DNA from: Reyranella sp.
GTDB lineage: Bacteria > Pseudomonadota > Alphaproteobacteria > Reyranellales > Reyranellaceae
NCBI GenBank assembly: GCA_029946105.1
Contig: JAQSDW010000117.1
Coordinates: forward strand, 1 to 36,145
DNA length: 36,145 nt
Direction of reading: 5' to 3'
This document shows, piece by piece, positions 25,767 to 32,948 of the stretch. Below the pieces are notes generated by a model. That model was not told where the DNA came from and did no database searches. It worked only from the letters and a program-made list of their open reading frames with translations. A program made the position numbers and the translations under genes. The first letter of the stretch is position 1. Every line of letters begins with the position of its first letter.

Positions 25767-26312
25767 ATGAGCTCTTTCCGGCTCCCCACTCTGTTTCTGC
25801 CACTGGTTGCGGGCTTGGCCCTTTTGACCGGAGCCTGTGGTGCGCCGCTCGCCGTCACGGCAGGCGGCTACGCCGCCGACGGCACGCTCATGGCCACCGG
25901 CAACAAGACCTCGAGCGACCACCTGGCATCGATGATGTCCAAGAAGGATTGCTCCTTCGTGCGTGTCTTCCGGAGCACCGATGTCTGCAGGGAACGCGAA
26001 GCGGGCACGGATCCCTATGCCGTCGATTATAACGAGCCCCAGCGATCGGTGAGCGAGGATGGCGTGAAGTACGGGCCCCCGCTGCGCTCTGCAGCGGACG
26101 TGCCCGCCACAAGCTGGGATGCTGCGGCCTACAAGGCCGCCCCGGCCCCGGCCCCGCCGTCGCCCGCGCCAACCGAGCCCGTCATGGCCGTTACCGATTC
26201 GACTCCAGCACCAGCCTCCGCGGCGCCCGCCGCCGTGCCCAAGGCCAAGAAGGGCAAGGCTGTGCGCGCAGCTAAGAAGCCTTCACGAGGTCAGGCGGCG
26301 CCTGCTTCCTGA
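25767..26312 (+). CDS. Exported or lipid-anchored protein of unknown function
   Basis: This 181-residue protein starts with a signal-like segment (LFLPLVAGLALLTGAC). The Cys at 24 could be lipidated, but Thr at the -3 position is poor for a lipobox. The mature part has a GGYAADGTLMATGNKTSSDH region, then CSFVRVFRSTDVCRE, with two cysteines 14 residues apart that could form a disulfide. Residues 120-160 are rich in Ala and Pro. The tail is rich in Lys and Arg (KAKKGKAVRAAKK), suited to binding cell wall or outer-membrane phosphates. I do not recognise a characterised family. A strong AT-rich promoter precedes it. The last 41 bases overlap the 3' end of the convergent dehydrogenase gene. Confidence 0.75.
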   Translation: MSSFRLPTLFLPLVAGLALLTGACGAPLAVTAGGYAADGTLMATGNKTSSDHLASMMSKKDCSFVRVFRSTDVCREREAGTDPYAVDYNEPQRSVSEDGVKYGPPLRSAADVPATSWDAAAYKAAPAPAPPSPAPTEPVMAVTDSTPAPASAAPAAVPKAKKGKAVRAAKKPSRGQAAPAS

Positions 26313-27249
26313 GCAGGAAGGCCTCGAGATTGTCGAGCGCCTTGAAGCCCATGGCATTACGGGTTTCCACGGTCGCCGAGCCCATGTGCGGCAACAGGAA
26401 CGCATTCTCCAGATCGTAGTAACCCTCGTGGATCTTGGGCTCGCCATCGAACACGTCTAAGCCCGCCGAGGCGATCCGGCCGCTTTTCAGCGCCTGGATC
26501 AGCGCATCGTCGTCGACGACACCGCCGCGCGCGGTGTTCACGACCACCGCGCCCTTGGGCAGCTTGGCGAGGCGCTCGGCATTCACCCATTTGCGCGTCG
26601 CCGGAGTCATCGGCGCATTGATCGACAGGAAGTCGCTGTACGGCAGCATGTCGTCGGGGTTGGCGTGGAAGATGGCGCCTTTTTCGAGATCGGCTGGCAG
26701 GCGGCTGCGGTTGCTGTAGTGGATCTGCATGCGAAACGCGCGAGCCCGCTCGGCGACCGCCTGGCCGATGCGGCCCATCCCGAGGATGCCCAGTCTCTTG
26801 CCGGTGACATGCACACCGGTCAGCTGGTTGGGGTTCCAGCCGACCCAGTTGCGAGTCCGCAGCATGGTCGTGCCCTCGTGGGCGCGTCGGGCTGCCCCCA
26901 ACAGGCAGAGCAGCGTGATGTCCGCCGTGGCGTCGGTCAGGACATCCGGCGTGTTACTGACGGCAATGTTGCGCTTGGCCGCGGCGGCGACGTCGACATG
27001 TTCGTAGCCGACCGAGAAAGTGGAGATGATTTGGACGGAGGTGGGCAGGGCAGCGATCGTCTCGGCGGTGAGGGCATCGCCCGCTGCGCACATGATGCCG
27101 TCGCAGCCGGCCGACGCCGCGACCAGACCGGGTCCATCATAAAGCCGGTCCTCGGGATTGAGAACGGCATCGAAACTGGCCGTCAGCCGGGTTTCCACGT
27201 CGGGCGGGAAATGGCGGGTCGCCAAAACCTTGGGTTTGCGATTGGTCAT
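26272..27249 (-). CDS. D-isomer 2-hydroxyacid dehydrogenase (glyoxylate reductase-like)
   Basis: This is a 325-residue NAD(P)-dependent enzyme of the glyoxylate/hydroxypyruvate reductase group. The Rossmann motif is GILGMGRIGQAVAERA. Catalytic residues are in place: Arg in VVNTARGGVVDDDAL, Glu in GLDVFDGEP and His in LLPHMGSAT. After the second strand, HYSNRSRLP suggests NADP preference (Arg residues after the acidic position are used). The ATG at 27249 follows GGGAGGA; the frame also reaches 27309, unnecessarily. Glyoxylate or hydroxypyruvate is the likely substrate class but is not proven. The 3' end overlaps the convergent small envelope protein gene. Confidence 0.9.
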   Translation of the reverse strand: MTNRKPKVLATRHFPPDVETRLTASFDAVLNPEDRLYDGPGLVAASAGCDGIMCAAGDALTAETIAALPTSVQIISTFSVGYEHVDVAAAAKRNIAVSNTPDVLTDATADITLLCLLGAARRAHEGTTMLRTRNWVGWNPNQLTGVHVTGKRLGILGMGRIGQAVAERARAFRMQIHYSNRSRLPADLEKGAIFHANPDDMLPYSDFLSINAPMTPATRKWVNAERLAKLPKGAVVVNTARGGVVDDDALIQALKSGRIASAGLDVFDGEPKIHEGYYDLENAFLLPHMGSATVETRNAMGFKALDNLEAFLLRKQAPPDLVKAS

Positions 27250-27320
27250 GGTCGCTATCCTCCCTGTGCAGCCCTGCCGCAGGCGATCATTCTGGTATTC
27301 TGCGTCCATGGATATTACGC

Positions 27321-28223
27321 TTGGCCGCCCGGCTACAAGGCCTAGCCCTCAGCCATTGTCCGTTGACCACGTATAGTTTTAGCTGTCCTCGCGTCCAAAC
27401 AGCGGCCTTCGGTGCCGCCGTCGTCGCCATGCTGTTGGCGGTCCTGTGGATAAGCGTCGCCGATGCGCAGCAGCAGCCTGAGTCGATTCTGGTGCCGCAT
27501 CGGGCCACCTACGACATGAAACTGTCCGTGGCCCGTCCCAACAGCGGGATCGTCGAGGTCAGTGGGCGCATGGTCATCGAGAACGTCGATTCATGCGACG
27601 CCTGGGAGGTCAAGCAGCGCATCAAGCTCAAGTTCCTGCGCAACGACAGTGAGGAATTCAGCACCGATTCGAGCTTCACCAGCTACGAGACCAAGGACGG
27701 GCTGGGTCTGCGCTTCAGTGTCCGCAACATCCAGGACAACGAGGTCGAGGAAGAACTGCGGGGTCACGCCGACCTCGTGGCGACGGGCGGCAAGGGGCGG
27801 GCCACTTTCACCCTGCCCGAGGCACGCAGCTTCGAGCTTCCGGCCGGAACCTTGTTCCCGACCACCCATCTCGCGCTGATCATCCAGCATGCCCGCAATG
27901 GCGATCAGTCGGCCTCCTACGGTGTGTTCGATGGGGCACGGCTCGACGGGGCATTCCAGGTCAATGCCGTCATCGGCCGCGCGCCCCGCGCCACCGGGGC
28001 ACCGGCTGTCCGCGGCGATGTCGCGCTCCTGCGCAACCAGCCTGCCTGGGGCGTTCGGCTCGCCTTCTTCGCCACCGGCGACCAGGGCACCAACCCCGAG
28101 TATGAGCTGGCGCTCGATCTGCTGGGCAACGGCGTCGCCCGGTCGATGCTGCTCGACTATGGTGACTTCGCCATCGACGCCCGTCTGGTTCAACTTCAAG
28201 CGCTGCCGAGGCCGAAATGCTGA
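27321..28223 (+). CDS. EipB-like periplasmic envelope protein (DUF1849), first copy
   Basis: The protein has about 300 residues in the longest frame. A signal/anchor segment (FGAAVVAMLLAVLWISVADA, about 30-49) is followed by the mature start VPHRATYDMKL, the typical opening of DUF1849. The rest is beta-rich, with PAGTLFPTTHLALIIQHA and VNAVIGRAP. EipB of Brucella is a periplasmic spiral beta-barrel needed for envelope integrity, with one disulfide linking an early Cys to the C-terminal Cys. Here Cys92 (VDSCDAWEV) and the last residue Cys300 fit that pair. The start is uncertain: TTG 27321 has no ribosome site, and ATG 27429 would clip the signal. The next gene overlaps it by 7 bases. Confidence 0.85.
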   Translation: MAARLQGLALSHCPLTTYSFSCPRVQTAAFGAAVVAMLLAVLWISVADAQQQPESILVPHRATYDMKLSVARPNSGIVEVSGRMVIENVDSCDAWEVKQRIKLKFLRNDSEEFSTDSSFTSYETKDGLGLRFSVRNIQDNEVEEELRGHADLVATGGKGRATFTLPEARSFELPAGTLFPTTHLALIIQHARNGDQSASYGVFDGARLDGAFQVNAVIGRAPRATGAPAVRGDVALLRNQPAWGVRLAFFATGDQGTNPEYELALDLLGNGVARSMLLDYGDFAIDARLVQLQALPRPKC

Positions 28224-29035
28224 ATTATCACCACGCCACGCCAGCGGCTCTCGCCGCAGCATTCAGTATTGCTTTCGCAGGCCCCACGTTGGCGCAGGAC
28301 TTCGCCGCGCACCGGGCCGTCTATTCGGTCGTGACCCTGGAAAAGGGCAAGCCGAGCGGCGATGCGCCCGGCACCTACGCCTATGAACTTAAGCTGACGT
28401 GCGACGGCGGCTACGTCATCAACCAGCGCCTGAAGCTGGAGATGGCTGGCGCGCGGGGATCGGTCGTGAGCGAACAGCAATCTCAGATGACGGAGAGCCG
28501 TGACGGCAAGAAGCTTGTCTTCGAGCATCGCACGACCGCCAACGGCAAGCAGACGGGCATGGTGAAAGGCGAGGCCTTGATCGGCGACGACGGCAGCGGG
28601 CAGGCGCGATTCACCGACCCCGAAGGGCAGACCGTGGCCCTGCCGGGCGGCACGCTGTTTCCGGTGGCCATCGCGCGCGCCACGATCCGCCAGGCCAAGG
28701 CGGGCGAGAACGGCTTCGATACCCTGTTTTTCTTCGGTGAAAAGGTGAAGCCGCCGCAATCCGTGAACATCCTGATCGGCAAGGTGCCGAAGCGCCTTGC
28801 CGACGTGAATATCCCGGAGGGCGCCGAGGCTTTGGCCGAGGGGCGCGCGCGGATCTACTACCGCGCCGGCTTCTTCGATGCCGGGACCAAGGGACAGGGC
28901 GAGCCCGCGTTCGAGATGAGCAGCCTCACGCTCGACAACGGCATCGAACTGTTCGGCACCCACGAGGAGGGTGAAGGCGGCATCGAATACCGCATCACCA
29001 GGCTGGAAGCGCTGCTCAAGCCGAGCTGCAACTAG
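28217..29035 (+). CDS. EipB-like periplasmic envelope protein (DUF1849), second copy
   Basis: This is a 272-residue paralogue of the gene upstream. The signal peptide has LAAAFSIAFAGPTLA, with cleavage near AQ at 27. The mature protein opens AAHRAVYSVVTLEKGK and keeps the DUF1849 pattern YAYELKLTCDGGYVINQRLKLEM, LPGGTLFPVAIARATI and NILIGKVPKRL. The early Cys62 (LTCDGG) and penultimate Cys271 (KPSCN) again match the single conserved disulfide. Its ATG lies in the last codons of the first copy (ATGCTGA), so translation is coupled. The sequence is clearly different from copy one outside the motifs, so the duplication is old. Confidence 0.88.
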   Translation: MLNYHHATPAALAAAFSIAFAGPTLAQDFAAHRAVYSVVTLEKGKPSGDAPGTYAYELKLTCDGGYVINQRLKLEMAGARGSVVSEQQSQMTESRDGKKLVFEHRTTANGKQTGMVKGEALIGDDGSGQARFTDPEGQTVALPGGTLFPVAIARATIRQAKAGENGFDTLFFFGEKVKPPQSVNILIGKVPKRLADVNIPEGAEALAEGRARIYYRAGFFDAGTKGQGEPAFEMSSLTLDNGIELFGTHEEGEGGIEYRITRLEALLKPSCN

Positions 29036-30936: not shown

Positions 30937-31842
30937 CTAGGCTTCGGGCCACAGCCAGGCAGCTCCGCGCACACCGCTCGAATCGCCGTACTTCGGGGGT
31001 AGCAGGAGGGTGACGATGCTGTCGGACTCGGAGAATACCTCGCGCTTCCACAGCTCGGGGACGCGGCTGTAGAGCTGGATCATGCGTGACAAGCCGCCGC
31101 CCAGCACGATGGCGTTGGGGTCGAGGATGTTGATGACGACGCTGAGTGCGCGCGCGAGGCGATCGCAATAGAGCTCCATCTGGTCGGCTGCTTCGATGTC
31201 GCCGGCCAGCGCCGCCTCGGCGATGTCGGTGGCGCGCAGGTCGCGGCCGGTGCGCTCGGCAAACTGGCGCTGCAGCGCCGGGCCGCTCAGCCAGGTCTCT
31301 ATGCAGCCCATGCGACCGCAATAGCAGCGCACGCCGGGCCGCTCGTCGTCGCGCGGCTGGGGCAGGGCGTTGTGTCCCCATTCGCCGGCGATCGCCTGGG
31401 CGCCGGTGATCGGCTTGCCGTCGATCGCAATGCCGCCGCCCACGCCGGTGCCCAGGATCACACCGAACACGATCTTGCATCCTGCCGCGGCGCCGTCGGT
31501 GGCCTCGGAGACGGCAAAGCAGTTGGCGTCGTTGGCCATCCGCACCTCGCGGCCGAGCGCGCGTTCGACATCACGGTGCAATGGCCGTCCGTTGAGGCGC
31601 GTCGAATTGGCGTTCTTGATCAGGCTAGTCGCCGGTGAGATCGCCCCGGGAGTGGCCAGCCCGACGGAACATTCCGCGCCGACCTGCCGCTCCAGTTCGC
31701 GCACGACCTCGACGATCGACTTGATGGCGTCCTCGTACGAGCCCGGCGGCGTGGGAACGCGCAGGCGCCCCCGTTCCGTGCCGTCCCTGTCGAGCACCAG
31801 GCCTTCGATCTTGGTGCCGCCGAGGTCGATTCCGATCCGCAT
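30937..31842 (-). CDS. ROK family sugar kinase (fructokinase-like)
   Basis: This is a 301-residue cytosolic kinase. The phosphate motif is IGIDLGGTKIEG at 3-14. The catalytic Asp is in NDANCF (104-109), and the adenine loop is GTGVGGGI (131-138). GEWGHNAL (153-160) and the zinc-binding CYCGRMGCIE (173-182) are the ROK signature; the CxCGxxGCxE form occurs in fructokinase/Mak and glucokinase members. No DNA-binding domain precedes it, so it is a kinase and not a repressor. The exact hexose is not determined. It follows the Ntn hydrolase gene by 5 bases on the same strand. Confidence 0.9.
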   Translation of the reverse strand: MRIGIDLGGTKIEGLVLDRDGTERGRLRVPTPPGSYEDAIKSIVEVVRELERQVGAECSVGLATPGAISPATSLIKNANSTRLNGRPLHRDVERALGREVRMANDANCFAVSEATDGAAAGCKIVFGVILGTGVGGGIAIDGKPITGAQAIAGEWGHNALPQPRDDERPGVRCYCGRMGCIETWLSGPALQRQFAERTGRDLRATDIAEAALAGDIEAADQMELYCDRLARALSVVINILDPNAIVLGGGLSRMIQLYSRVPELWKREVFSESDSIVTLLLPPKYGDSSGVRGAAWLWPEA

Positions 31843-31847
31843 GACGC

Positions 31848-32948
31848 CTATTGGGTTGGTGCTGGCAGGAACTTGAACGGCTCGGACGACTTGAAGTTGC
31901 CCGCGACCTCGCCGGAGAACACTTCCCCGTTCTGGATCGTAAGCTTCCTGACCGGTGCCCCGGGCTTGAGGTCGAGATTGGCGAGCGAGACCCAGAATGT
32001 ATTCGGCCGTGTCGCCGAGTCGAAGAAGTAGACGAGGTTCTTCTGGTCGGCGACAGTGCGCCAGATCGTCGATGAAATGTTCGGCTGATCCGGCGTGGTG
32101 ATGCCGAGTGGCACGCTCACGGCGCGCTGCACGCCCATCACGCTGGCGACCGCCTGATTGGCGAAGGATTGCTGTGGCACGCTCTTGATGTAGTTCTTGT
32201 CGATCTGTGTGGGGATCGCGCCCAGCAGGAACGAGGCGCGCGCAAAGCGGTCGGCCGCCCGGTTGGTGCCGGGCAGGAAGGTCAGGCCGCCGATGCCCTT
32301 CCAGTATTCGTTGAGAGCGAGCTGCTCGCTGTAGATCGGCGAATTCGTCATCACGGTGTACTGCTTGCCGTGATGGATCTGCAGCTTACCGCCGACATAT
32401 TCGAAGATCGCCGAGTCGCCCGACGAGTCCGAGATCGCCAGATGCAGCGCAGCCGGCGTGCCGTTCGGCAGCGCCGGGGCGAGCATGGAGAACGGCTCCT
32501 TTCGCAGTGCATCGACGGCGGCGGCGACGGTCGCGAAATTGTCGAGGACGTACTGCGGCCAGGTCGAGATCGAGAGCAGTGGCCGGCTTGCGTCGGGCTT
32601 TCCGTAATCGGACTCCGCGAGATAAAGCAGGTTCGCGACGAGGCCCTTCTCGTTCATCCCGTCGGTGCTGCCGACCTCATAGCCCGAGACGACCACGCTC
32701 CCGTACCTGGCCGTCCAATGCAGCGACCTCGGACCAGCGGCGCCGTCGCGCTTCATGCCGGCCGGGAACACCCAGAGGTTCGACGCCATGTCCTCCTTCC
32801 AGTCCATGTTGCGGCCGGTGATGACGGTGTTGTCGGCTCCGACAAAGAGCGTGCGTGTGCAGGCGATGGCGGTGCCGACGACCGCGGGCGTCGCCAGCAG
32901 GACGGCGGAAAGTGCCAGGGCCACGGAAGTCGAATGATGTCGGGTCAT
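31848..32948 (-). CDS. Exported Ntn-type linear amide hydrolase (choloylglycine hydrolase family)
   Basis: This is a 366-residue enzyme of the penicillin V acylase / bile salt hydrolase family, which cleaves non-peptide C-N amide bonds. A Sec signal (residues 1-29, ending GTAIA) would be cut directly before Cys30, exposing the N-terminal nucleophile. Arg46 and Asp49 (GRNMDW) are 16 and 19 residues after the Cys, as in bile salt hydrolase (Cys2, Arg18, Asp21). MTNSPIY at 200-206 supplies the oxyanion Asn, and DGMNEKGL the second Asn. It should act in the periplasm. N-acyl amides such as acyl-homoserine lactones are possible substrates but none is shown. It is cotranscribed with the ROK kinase gene. 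Confidence 0.88.
   Translation of the reverse strand: MTRHHSTSVALALSAVLLATPAVVGTAIACTRTLFVGADNTVITGRNMDWKEDMASNLWVFPAGMKRDGAAGPRSLHWTARYGSVVVSGYEVGSTDGMNEKGLVANLLYLAESDYGKPDASRPLLSISTWPQYVLDNFATVAAAVDALRKEPFSMLAPALPNGTPAALHLAISDSSGDSAIFEYVGGKLQIHHGKQYTVMTNSPIYSEQLALNEYWKGIGGLTFLPGTNRAADRFARASFLLGAIPTQIDKNYIKSVPQQSFANQAVASVMGVQRAVSVPLGITTPDQPNISSTIWRTVADQKNLVYFFDSATRPNTFWVSLANLDLKPGAPVRKLTIQNGEVFSGEVAGNFKSSEPFKFLPAPTQ

What the first reader, a model, noticed from the sequence alone, without database searches (positions are those of the whole stretch)
27321..29035. Tandem, translationally coupled EipB (DUF1849) paralogues
Two different DUF1849 proteins are encoded back to back with a 7-base overlap (ATGCTGA). 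Both keep the single early-plus-terminal cysteine pair known from Brucella EipB, and both have signal peptides, yet they differ strongly elsewhere. EipB is normally discussed as one protein, so the pair may form a heteromeric or two-step envelope system.
Basis: partly seen in the sequence, partly recalled or inferred. Interest (0 to 1): 0.62.

Follow-up and report, generated by a model that had tools for sequence, protein, structure and literature searches.

The report
Family-wide coupled EipB gene pair
One family of bacteria (Reyranella and relatives) carries two different versions of a cell-envelope protein side by side, and the start signal of the second gene is written inside the conserved tail of the first, so the two proteins are probably made, and perhaps work, together.

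Summary
Window 27363 (or 27321)-28223 and 28217-29035 encode two EipB/DUF1849 proteins (PF08904, 225 and 128 bits), 29% identical, overlapping by ATGCTGA. The window is, by its relatives, Reyranella. The pair is not peculiar to this genome: 67 of 68 EipB1-bearing genomes of the order have EipB2 beside it, whereas 215 of 226 matching genomes elsewhere in the class have one match. New here: the second gene's Shine-Dalgarno-like site and start lie inside EipB1's conserved LPRP[KR]C* tail. In 61 of 61 distinct pairs the codon before the last cysteine ends in A, and the tail arginine is AGG in 56 of 59; both are rare choices otherwise. A sister-family genome lacks EipB2 at the same locus. EipB1 is the positional orthologue. 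EipB2 is a faster, still purified paralogue that keeps fold and Cys pair but lost a conserved H/D/W/DY set. Both models match Brucella EipB and, more weakly, LolA. Best reading: a tandem duplication turned into a co-translated pair acting in one envelope process. Heteromer or hand-off is untested. A third, distant copy lies elsewhere in the genome.

The parts
27363..28223 (+). EipB1: canonical EipB (DUF1849/PF08904) with Sec-type signal peptide (by eye); alternative start 27321
   Evidence: PF08904 225 bits; groups with EipB of other Alphaproteobacteria in the tree; aspS/2-hydroxyacid dehydrogenase/ROK synteny; model matches 6ntr Z 30.2
27468..28220 (+). mature EipB1 as modelled (251 aa); cleavage site judged by eye
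   Evidence: mean pLDDT 95.0, pTM 0.90
27594..27596 (+). first conserved cysteine codon of EipB1
28208..28211 (+). GAGG, Shine-Dalgarno-like site for EipB2, 5 nt before its ATG, inside the Pro-Arg codons of EipB1's LPRPKC tail
   Evidence: GAGG within 12 nt before the ATG in 56 of 61 distinct pairs; the tail Arg is AGG in 56 of 59 pairs that have Arg there, against 97 of 2323 (4.2%) other Arg codons of the same genes
28215..28217 (+). AAA codon whose last A supplies the first base of EipB2's ATG
   Evidence: this codon ends in A in 61 of 61 pairs (CGA 28, AAA 27, AGA 5, CAA 1), against 6 of 68 in other EipB rows and 4 of 59 in EipB2's own tail
28217..28223 (+). 7-base overlap ATGCTGA: start of EipB2, last codon (Cys) and stop of EipB1
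28218..28220 (+). terminal conserved cysteine codon of EipB1
28217..29035 (+). EipB2: divergent EipB paralogue with Sec-type signal peptide (by eye)
   Evidence: PF08904 128 bits; own group, SH-aLRT 100; model matches 6ntr Z 27.4
28295..29032 (+). mature EipB2 as modelled (246 aa); cleavage site judged by eye
   Evidence: mean pLDDT 94.0, pTM 0.90
28400..28402 (+). first conserved cysteine codon of EipB2
29027..29029 (+). near-terminal conserved cysteine codon of EipB2
26272..27309 (-). divergent 2-hydroxyacid dehydrogenase, recurrent neighbour of EipB in the class
   Evidence: NCBIfam matches below their equivalog cut-offs
30937..31842 (-). ROK-family sugar kinase, recurrent convergent neighbour; next to EipB, 4 nt between the stop codons, in the genome that lacks EipB2

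Best explanation
A tandem duplication of the ordinary alphaproteobacterial eipB gene in the stem of the Reyranella family produced EipB2, which was locked to EipB1 by overlapping genes. Ribosomes finishing EipB1 re-initiate at, or are recruited to, the GAGG...ATG inside EipB1's last codons, so the two are made from one message in a set ratio (inferred from sequence). Both are exported by Sec and fold as EipB-type, LolA-like curved beta-barrels closed by the same cysteine pair (predicted). EipB1 keeps the conserved EipB residues and the ancestral job. EipB2 has lost a conserved His/Asp/Trp/Asp-Tyr set and has diverged to a complementary role in the same envelope process, most likely as a partner or acceptor for EipB1 (inferred).
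For: Pairing: 67 of 68 EipB1-bearing genomes of the order have EipB2 next to it, in G038 cut by the contig end; the exception is the sister-family genome G001. Coupling constraint: codon ending in A 61 of 61, tail Arg AGG 56 of 59, GAGG 56 of 61; controls 6 of 68 and 4 of 59; background AAA 8.8% of Lys, CGA plus AGA 4% and AGG 4.2% of Arg codons. Site without EipB2 in G001: EipB stop 4 nt from the ROK stop, tail Arg CGG, so no GAGG. Ancestry: EipB1+EipB2 as one clade is not rejected and has a higher log-likelihood than the free tree (p-AU 0.63; without G001's copy p-AU 0.78). Function kept: median dN/dS (NG86) 0.15 for EipB1, 0.32 for EipB2. Fold: 6ntr Z 30.2 and 27.4; LolA 1iwl Z 9.2 and 9.6. 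Residues mostly replaced in EipB2 and kept in 62 of 62 EipB1 rows: H134, D155, W194, D230, Y231 of the mature EipB1 model. EipB1-EipB2 distances stay correlated (0.77, 0.75, 0.72) with HADH, ROK or aspS held constant, EipB1-neighbour distances less so (0.05, 0.11, 0.33).
Against: No physical or genetic evidence of joint action. Neighbouring genes are often coupled without touching. The partial correlation rests on 26, 26 and 19 genomes, non-independent pairs and untrimmed neighbour frames, and EipB2 also keeps 0.42, 0.38 and 0.30 with the neighbours once EipB1 is held constant. EipB2's stem is long (1.68 changes per column), so its origin from EipB1 is compatible rather than shown, and the free tree left it unplaced. 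G001, without EipB2, also has AAA before the cysteine, so an ATG string in the tail may predate EipB2. Eight of 76 genomes of the order show no clear EipB1 or EipB2: five have a third-type copy, G055 has three matches, two of them fragments, and G034 (95% complete) and G061 (99%) have no DUF1849 match, so the pair is not universal.
Confidence: 0.45

Rival explanations
1. Coupled but independent: EipB2 is a neofunctionalised carrier or chaperone for a different client. Coupling only sets dosage and the two proteins never meet.
For: EipB2 mostly lost conserved EipB residues and evolves about twice as fast (dN ratio 2.03), as expected for a new client; a third, still more divergent copy (EipB3) sits at another locus.
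Against: Two codon constraints keep it tied to EipB1; among the matches listed no genome has EipB2 without EipB1.
Confidence: 0.38
2. Dosage or backup: two copies give more EipB activity.
For: Same predicted fold and same cysteine pair.
Against: Only 26-29% identity between neighbours, separate groups in the tree, and replacement of conserved residues in one group only: two copies kept for the same job need not differ so sharply.
Confidence: 0.1
3. EipB2 came by transfer or is older than the family, and did not arise from EipB1 by local duplication (this concerns origin, and is compatible with the functional readings).
For: In the free tree EipB2 is an unplaced long-branch group; other tandem pairs exist elsewhere in the class (G175, G273).
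Against: EipB1+EipB2 held together gives a better log-likelihood; no EipB2 at the G001 locus.
Confidence: 0.15
4. Decaying duplicate or chance frame: EipB2 is not a functional gene.
For: Faster evolution than EipB1.
Against: Present beside EipB1 in 67 of 68 genomes, dN/dS 0.32, conserved start and ribosome-binding site.
Confidence: 0.02

Closest known systems
EipB (DUF1849, PF08904) of Brucella abortus, PDB 6NTR
   Same: Sequence family, fold (6ntr Z 30.2 and 27.4), cysteine pair positions within the family alignment, signal peptide by eye.
   Different: Described as one protein (review PMC10787603, passages read). Here the gene is doubled and overlapping, and EipB2 has replaced several residues conserved in EipB. 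The review describes the eipB locus as anchored on bamA in Rhizobiales; here the neighbours are aspS, a 2-hydroxyacid dehydrogenase and a ROK kinase, at least one of which also flanks EipB in 49 of 58 class loci examined.
LolA/LolB lipoprotein carrier pair
   Same: LolA is the most frequent named family among the fold matches below EipB (1iwl Z 9.2 and 9.6), though an axonemal chain (9fqr) and DUF1089 (2h1t) score higher. A two-protein periplasmic relay is the analogy. The genome has one LolA match and no LolB match.
   Different: No Pfam LolA/LolB match; EipB is larger and carries a cysteine pair; EipB2 is not a lipoprotein by inspection, whereas E. coli LolB is (recalled); no lipoprotein client is known.
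RseB/MucB periplasmic stress sensors
   Same: Broadly similar fold (Z 6-8).
   Different: None of the six window neighbours scanned with NCBIfam is an anti-sigma factor (one of the six had no match at all); Z in this range may mean only a common arrangement.

Membership tests
EipB / DUF1849 (PF08904) | match to the family profile above its cut-off | tested here: met
   225.4 and 127.8 bits against a cut-off of 25
EipB / DUF1849 (PF08904) | EipB fold (6NTR) | tested here: met
   EipB1 Z 30.2, rmsd 1.9, 238 aligned; EipB2 Z 27.4, rmsd 2.6, 234 aligned, on predicted models
EipB / DUF1849 (PF08904) | cysteine pair at fixed positions | tested here: met
   residues present; the disulfide bond itself was not tested
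EipB / DUF1849 (PF08904) | signal peptide, periplasmic | tested here: inconclusive
   Sec-type leaders by eye; no signal-peptide program available
EipB / DUF1849 (PF08904) | orthologous locus | tested here: met
   EipB1 shares at least one of aspS, 2-hydroxyacid dehydrogenase and ROK kinase with 49 of 58 class loci; for EipB2 only by adjacency
EipB / DUF1849 (PF08904) | role in envelope integrity | not testable with these tools
   needs mutants
LolA/LolB (PF03548/PF03550) | match to the LolA or LolB profile | tested here: not met
   only PF08904 is reported for both proteins at E up to 0.1
LolA/LolB (PF03548/PF03550) | LolA-like beta fold | tested here: inconclusive
   1iwl Z 9.2 (136 aligned, rmsd 3.6) and 9.6 (137 aligned, rmsd 3.5): a shared arrangement, no proof of kinship
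LolA/LolB (PF03548/PF03550) | carries lipoproteins between membranes | not testable with these tools
   biochemistry needed

The most novel reading that the evidence does not exclude
EipB1 and EipB2 form an obligate two-carrier relay in the periplasm, the working equivalent of LolA and LolB (or of a similar lipid or outer-membrane-protein hand-off) in bacteria that lack LolB, with their ratio fixed by a start signal written into EipB1's conserved tail.
Probability: 0.1. Interest if true: 0.75.

Novelty: new variant of a known kind. Interest (0 to 1): 0.42.

Why it matters
[quoted passage not shown] A family that split the job between two co-encoded proteins gives a natural separation of functions and points to residues (H134, D155, W194, D230, Y231 of mature EipB1) that distinguish the two. 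The tail that serves two genes at once is also a clean, countable case of a conserved protein motif constrained by the next gene's translation start.

Tried and rejected
Chance frame or pseudogene for EipB2: rejected. EipB2 not DUF1849: rejected. EipB2 as a lipoprotein (LolB-like anchor): a loose lipobox pattern fits 2 of 61 leaders, but in both the cysteine lies in the hydrophobic stretch upstream of an AxA-Q site, so I do not accept it. A sigma-70 promoter or terminator between the genes: none found by the consensus scan, which covers few promoter types. Literature: 'EipB/DUF1849' (69 papers, 20 listed, many unrelated), 'Reyranella + DUF1849' (none), 'EipB + paralog + tandem' (none); the primary EipB paper is not held, so what I say of it comes from passages of the review PMC10787603. 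NCBIfam gave no family for the three EipB proteins.

Limits of the counts. The 61 pairs are what remains of 84 two-hit loci after six loci without the ATG at -7 (G175 and G273, three loci each, both outside the order) and identical EipB2 copies were removed; no locus of the order failed the ATG. Two of the 61 EipB2 are cut by a contig end. The AGG background (6.4%) included the tail codons themselves; without them it is 4.2%. The dN/dS set is 53 of 61 pairs and 1329 of 1378 comparisons. One search used 62 EipB1, 61 EipB2, 14 EipB3 and 71 other rows; the tree used 27, 26, 14 and 71. The 71 'other' rows include one foreign-looking copy from a genome of the order (G056); 68 of the 71 entered the tail control, and many of these have a residue other than Lys or Arg before the cysteine, so that control is loose. 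The synteny count used 58 of 60 class loci, two being too short. The match list was capped; I re-searched G038, G055, G028, G032 and G048, which raised the pairing from 66 to 67 of 68. The output was cut.

Other tandem pairs outside the order (G175, G273; spaced pairs in G161, G441) do not show the ATG at -7 where examined (G175, G273); G175's second gene starts 8 nt after the first stop. They look like separate events but were not tested by AU.

Full report
WHAT IS THERE. Two genes lie head to tail on the + strand. The first ends ...CTG CCG AGG CCG AAA TGC TGA (28223); the second begins ATG at 28217, giving the overlap ATGCTGA. Both are DUF1849/EipB by Pfam (225.4 and 127.8 bits, cut-off 25), both find Brucella EipB 6ntr by sequence (E 2.1e-27 and 7.5e-10), and they are 29% identical to each other.

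WHERE. The window is contig C117 of a 5.6 Mb genome. The closest named loci, up to 90% identical to EipB2, belong to Reyranella or to MAGs, most of them titled as Alphaproteobacteria, with R. massiliensis, R. soli and R. aquatilis among them; that the window is Reyranella is inferred from this. The genome has a third DUF1849 gene on contig C218 (98 bits).

HOW COMMON. Within the order, 74 of 76 genomes have a DUF1849 match and 66 of 76 have three or more matches. Reading that capped table, 68 genomes have an EipB1-type match and 66 of these have EipB2 directly beside it; a second search found the cut EipB2 beside EipB1 in G038 (C39:5-385), making 67 of 68. The exception is G001, the only member of another family. 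Eight of 76 show no clear EipB1 or EipB2: G002, G021, G044, G056 and G074 have a third-type copy, G055 has three matches, two of them fragments, G034 and G061 have none. In the class-wide draw 231 of 385 genomes match; leaving out the five of the window's family, 226 match, 215 with one match and 11 with two or more, some of these being fragments of one gene. Adjacent pairs outside the order were seen in G175 and G273, and pairs 1-2 kb apart in G161 and G441. So a tandem pair is the rule in this family and rare elsewhere.

THE START SIGNAL INSIDE THE TAIL. In all 61 distinct pairs of the order the second gene has an ATG at -7 relative to the end of the first; the only two-hit loci without it are those of two genomes outside the order. 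This requires the codon before EipB1's last cysteine to end in A. It does in 61 of 61 (CGA 28, AAA 27, AGA 5, CAA 1), although AAA is 8.8% of Lys codons and CGA plus AGA are 4% of Arg codons elsewhere in the same genes. The residue itself changes between Arg, Lys and Gln while the A stays. The Arg of LPRP is AGG in 56 of 59 against 4.2% of other Arg codons, and with the codon before it makes GAGG, five bases before the ATG in the window; GAGG lies within 12 nt of the ATG in 56 of 61. Controls: in other EipB rows that codon ends in A in 6 of 68, and in EipB2's own tail in 4 of 59. A similar tail occurs in EipB elsewhere; its Arg, where present, is CGC 9, CGG 4, AGG 3. So the protein motif is older and the codon choice was bent to serve the next gene. 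Against too neat a story: G001, which has no EipB2, also uses AAA before the cysteine, so an ATG string was available there, but with CGG instead of AGG and no long frame behind it. The 61 sequences are related, so these counts are not independent events.

ORIGIN. EipB1, EipB2 and EipB3 each form one group (SH-aLRT 94, 100, 100); EipB1 groups with ordinary EipB, EipB2 has a long stem and EipB3 a longer one. Holding EipB1 and EipB2 together gives a better log-likelihood than the free search found (+9.7, p-AU 0.63), and leaving out G001's copy still more (+24.6, p-AU 0.78); neither test proves the clade. In G001 the EipB stop (2589 of L181) and the ROK stop (2584) face each other with 4 nt between: the site as it looks without EipB2. 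Neighbours aspS, 2-hydroxyacid dehydrogenase and ROK recur: at least one of the three lies near EipB in 49 of 58 class loci, which makes EipB1 the positional orthologue. A tandem duplication after the split from G001's lineage explains all this most simply; loss in G001 is not excluded.

WHAT CHANGED. Both copies are under purifying selection: median dN/dS (NG86) 0.15 and 0.32, dN of EipB2 about 2.03 times that of EipB1 over 1329 comparisons. The cysteine pair is kept by all three groups. Of residues kept in about 80-90% of other EipB rows, EipB1 keeps (62 of 62 each) and EipB2 has mostly replaced the His of FPT-H, the Asp of FDG, a Trp, and the Asp-Tyr of DYGDF (mature EipB1 model positions 134, 155, 194, 230, 231); the Asp of DYGDF becomes Glu in 56 of 61, a mild change. 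EipB3 keeps the Asp of FDG and the Trp but has lost the His and mostly the Tyr. Models of mature EipB2 and EipB1 are confident (pLDDT 94.0 and 95.0, pTM 0.90 both), match 6ntr (Z 27.4 and 30.2), and then, at much lower Z, a mixed list in which LolA is the most frequent named family (1iwl Z 9.6 and 9.2). Above LolA stand an axonemal chain of 9fqr (Z 12.3 and 12.7) and DUF1089 2h1t (Z 10.1 and 10.7), so the LolA likeness is of arrangement, not proof of kinship or function.

HOW IT MIGHT WORK. Shown: gene order, overlap, family-wide conservation, codon constraint, family membership. Predicted: fold. Inferred: co-translation in a set ratio, export by Sec, action in one envelope process. Only suggested: contact or hand-off between the two. 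Distances of EipB1 and EipB2 stay correlated with HADH, ROK or aspS held constant (0.77, 0.75, 0.72; 26, 26 and 19 genomes), while EipB1 with those neighbours falls to 0.05, 0.11 and 0.33 when EipB2 is held constant; EipB2 with them, EipB1 held constant, keeps 0.42, 0.38 and 0.30. Pairwise distances are not independent, so this is a hint only. The genome has one LolA match and no LolB match, as the review says of Alphaproteobacteria, which leaves room for a LolB-like role but does not assign it.

NOVELTY. The members are known; the arrangement, its fixation in the family and the tail that serves two genes were not found in the library searched. I file it as a new variant of a known kind.

Noticed in passing
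L175 5815-6810 (-), G000:C218: Third, very divergent EipB copy (EipB3) beside reading frames that look like a photolyase, an amine-oxidase-type flavoprotein and a cyclopropane-fatty-acid synthase (named by eye), and divergent to a frame with a weak, below-cut-off LdtF/DpaA (YafK) match. Cys pair in 14 of 14 EipB3 rows.
   Followed up: partly
window 27290-27480: The DNA upstream of EipB1, shared with the divergent 2-hydroxyacid dehydrogenase, is strongly conserved across Reyranella (blocks around TGGATATTACGCT, GGCTACAAGGCCTAGCC and GTTGACCACGTATAGTTTTCGC), perhaps more than coding need explains; possible regulatory or leader element.
   Followed up: partly
L182 (G175) and L183 (G273): Tandem EipB pairs in two other families of the class, without the ATGCTGA overlap; in G175 an AGGAGG straddles the first stop and the second ATG follows 8 nt after that stop. 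Probably separate duplications.
   Followed up: partly
L004 (G056): A MAG of the Reyranella genus without a clear EipB1/EipB2 pair but with a foreign-looking EipB (301.7 bits) closest to that of a distant class member (L108); transfer or contamination.
   Followed up: no
G034, G061: Two genomes of the genus, 95% and 99% complete, have no DUF1849 match at all; real loss or assembly gap.
   Followed up: no
window 25767-26312: Small reading frame after aspS, found again in relatives (47-86% identity) and in G001, with no NCBIfam match.
   Followed up: no
window 31848-32948: Choloylglycine-hydrolase-like (Ntn hydrolase) protein, below all NCBIfam cut-offs.
   Followed up: no
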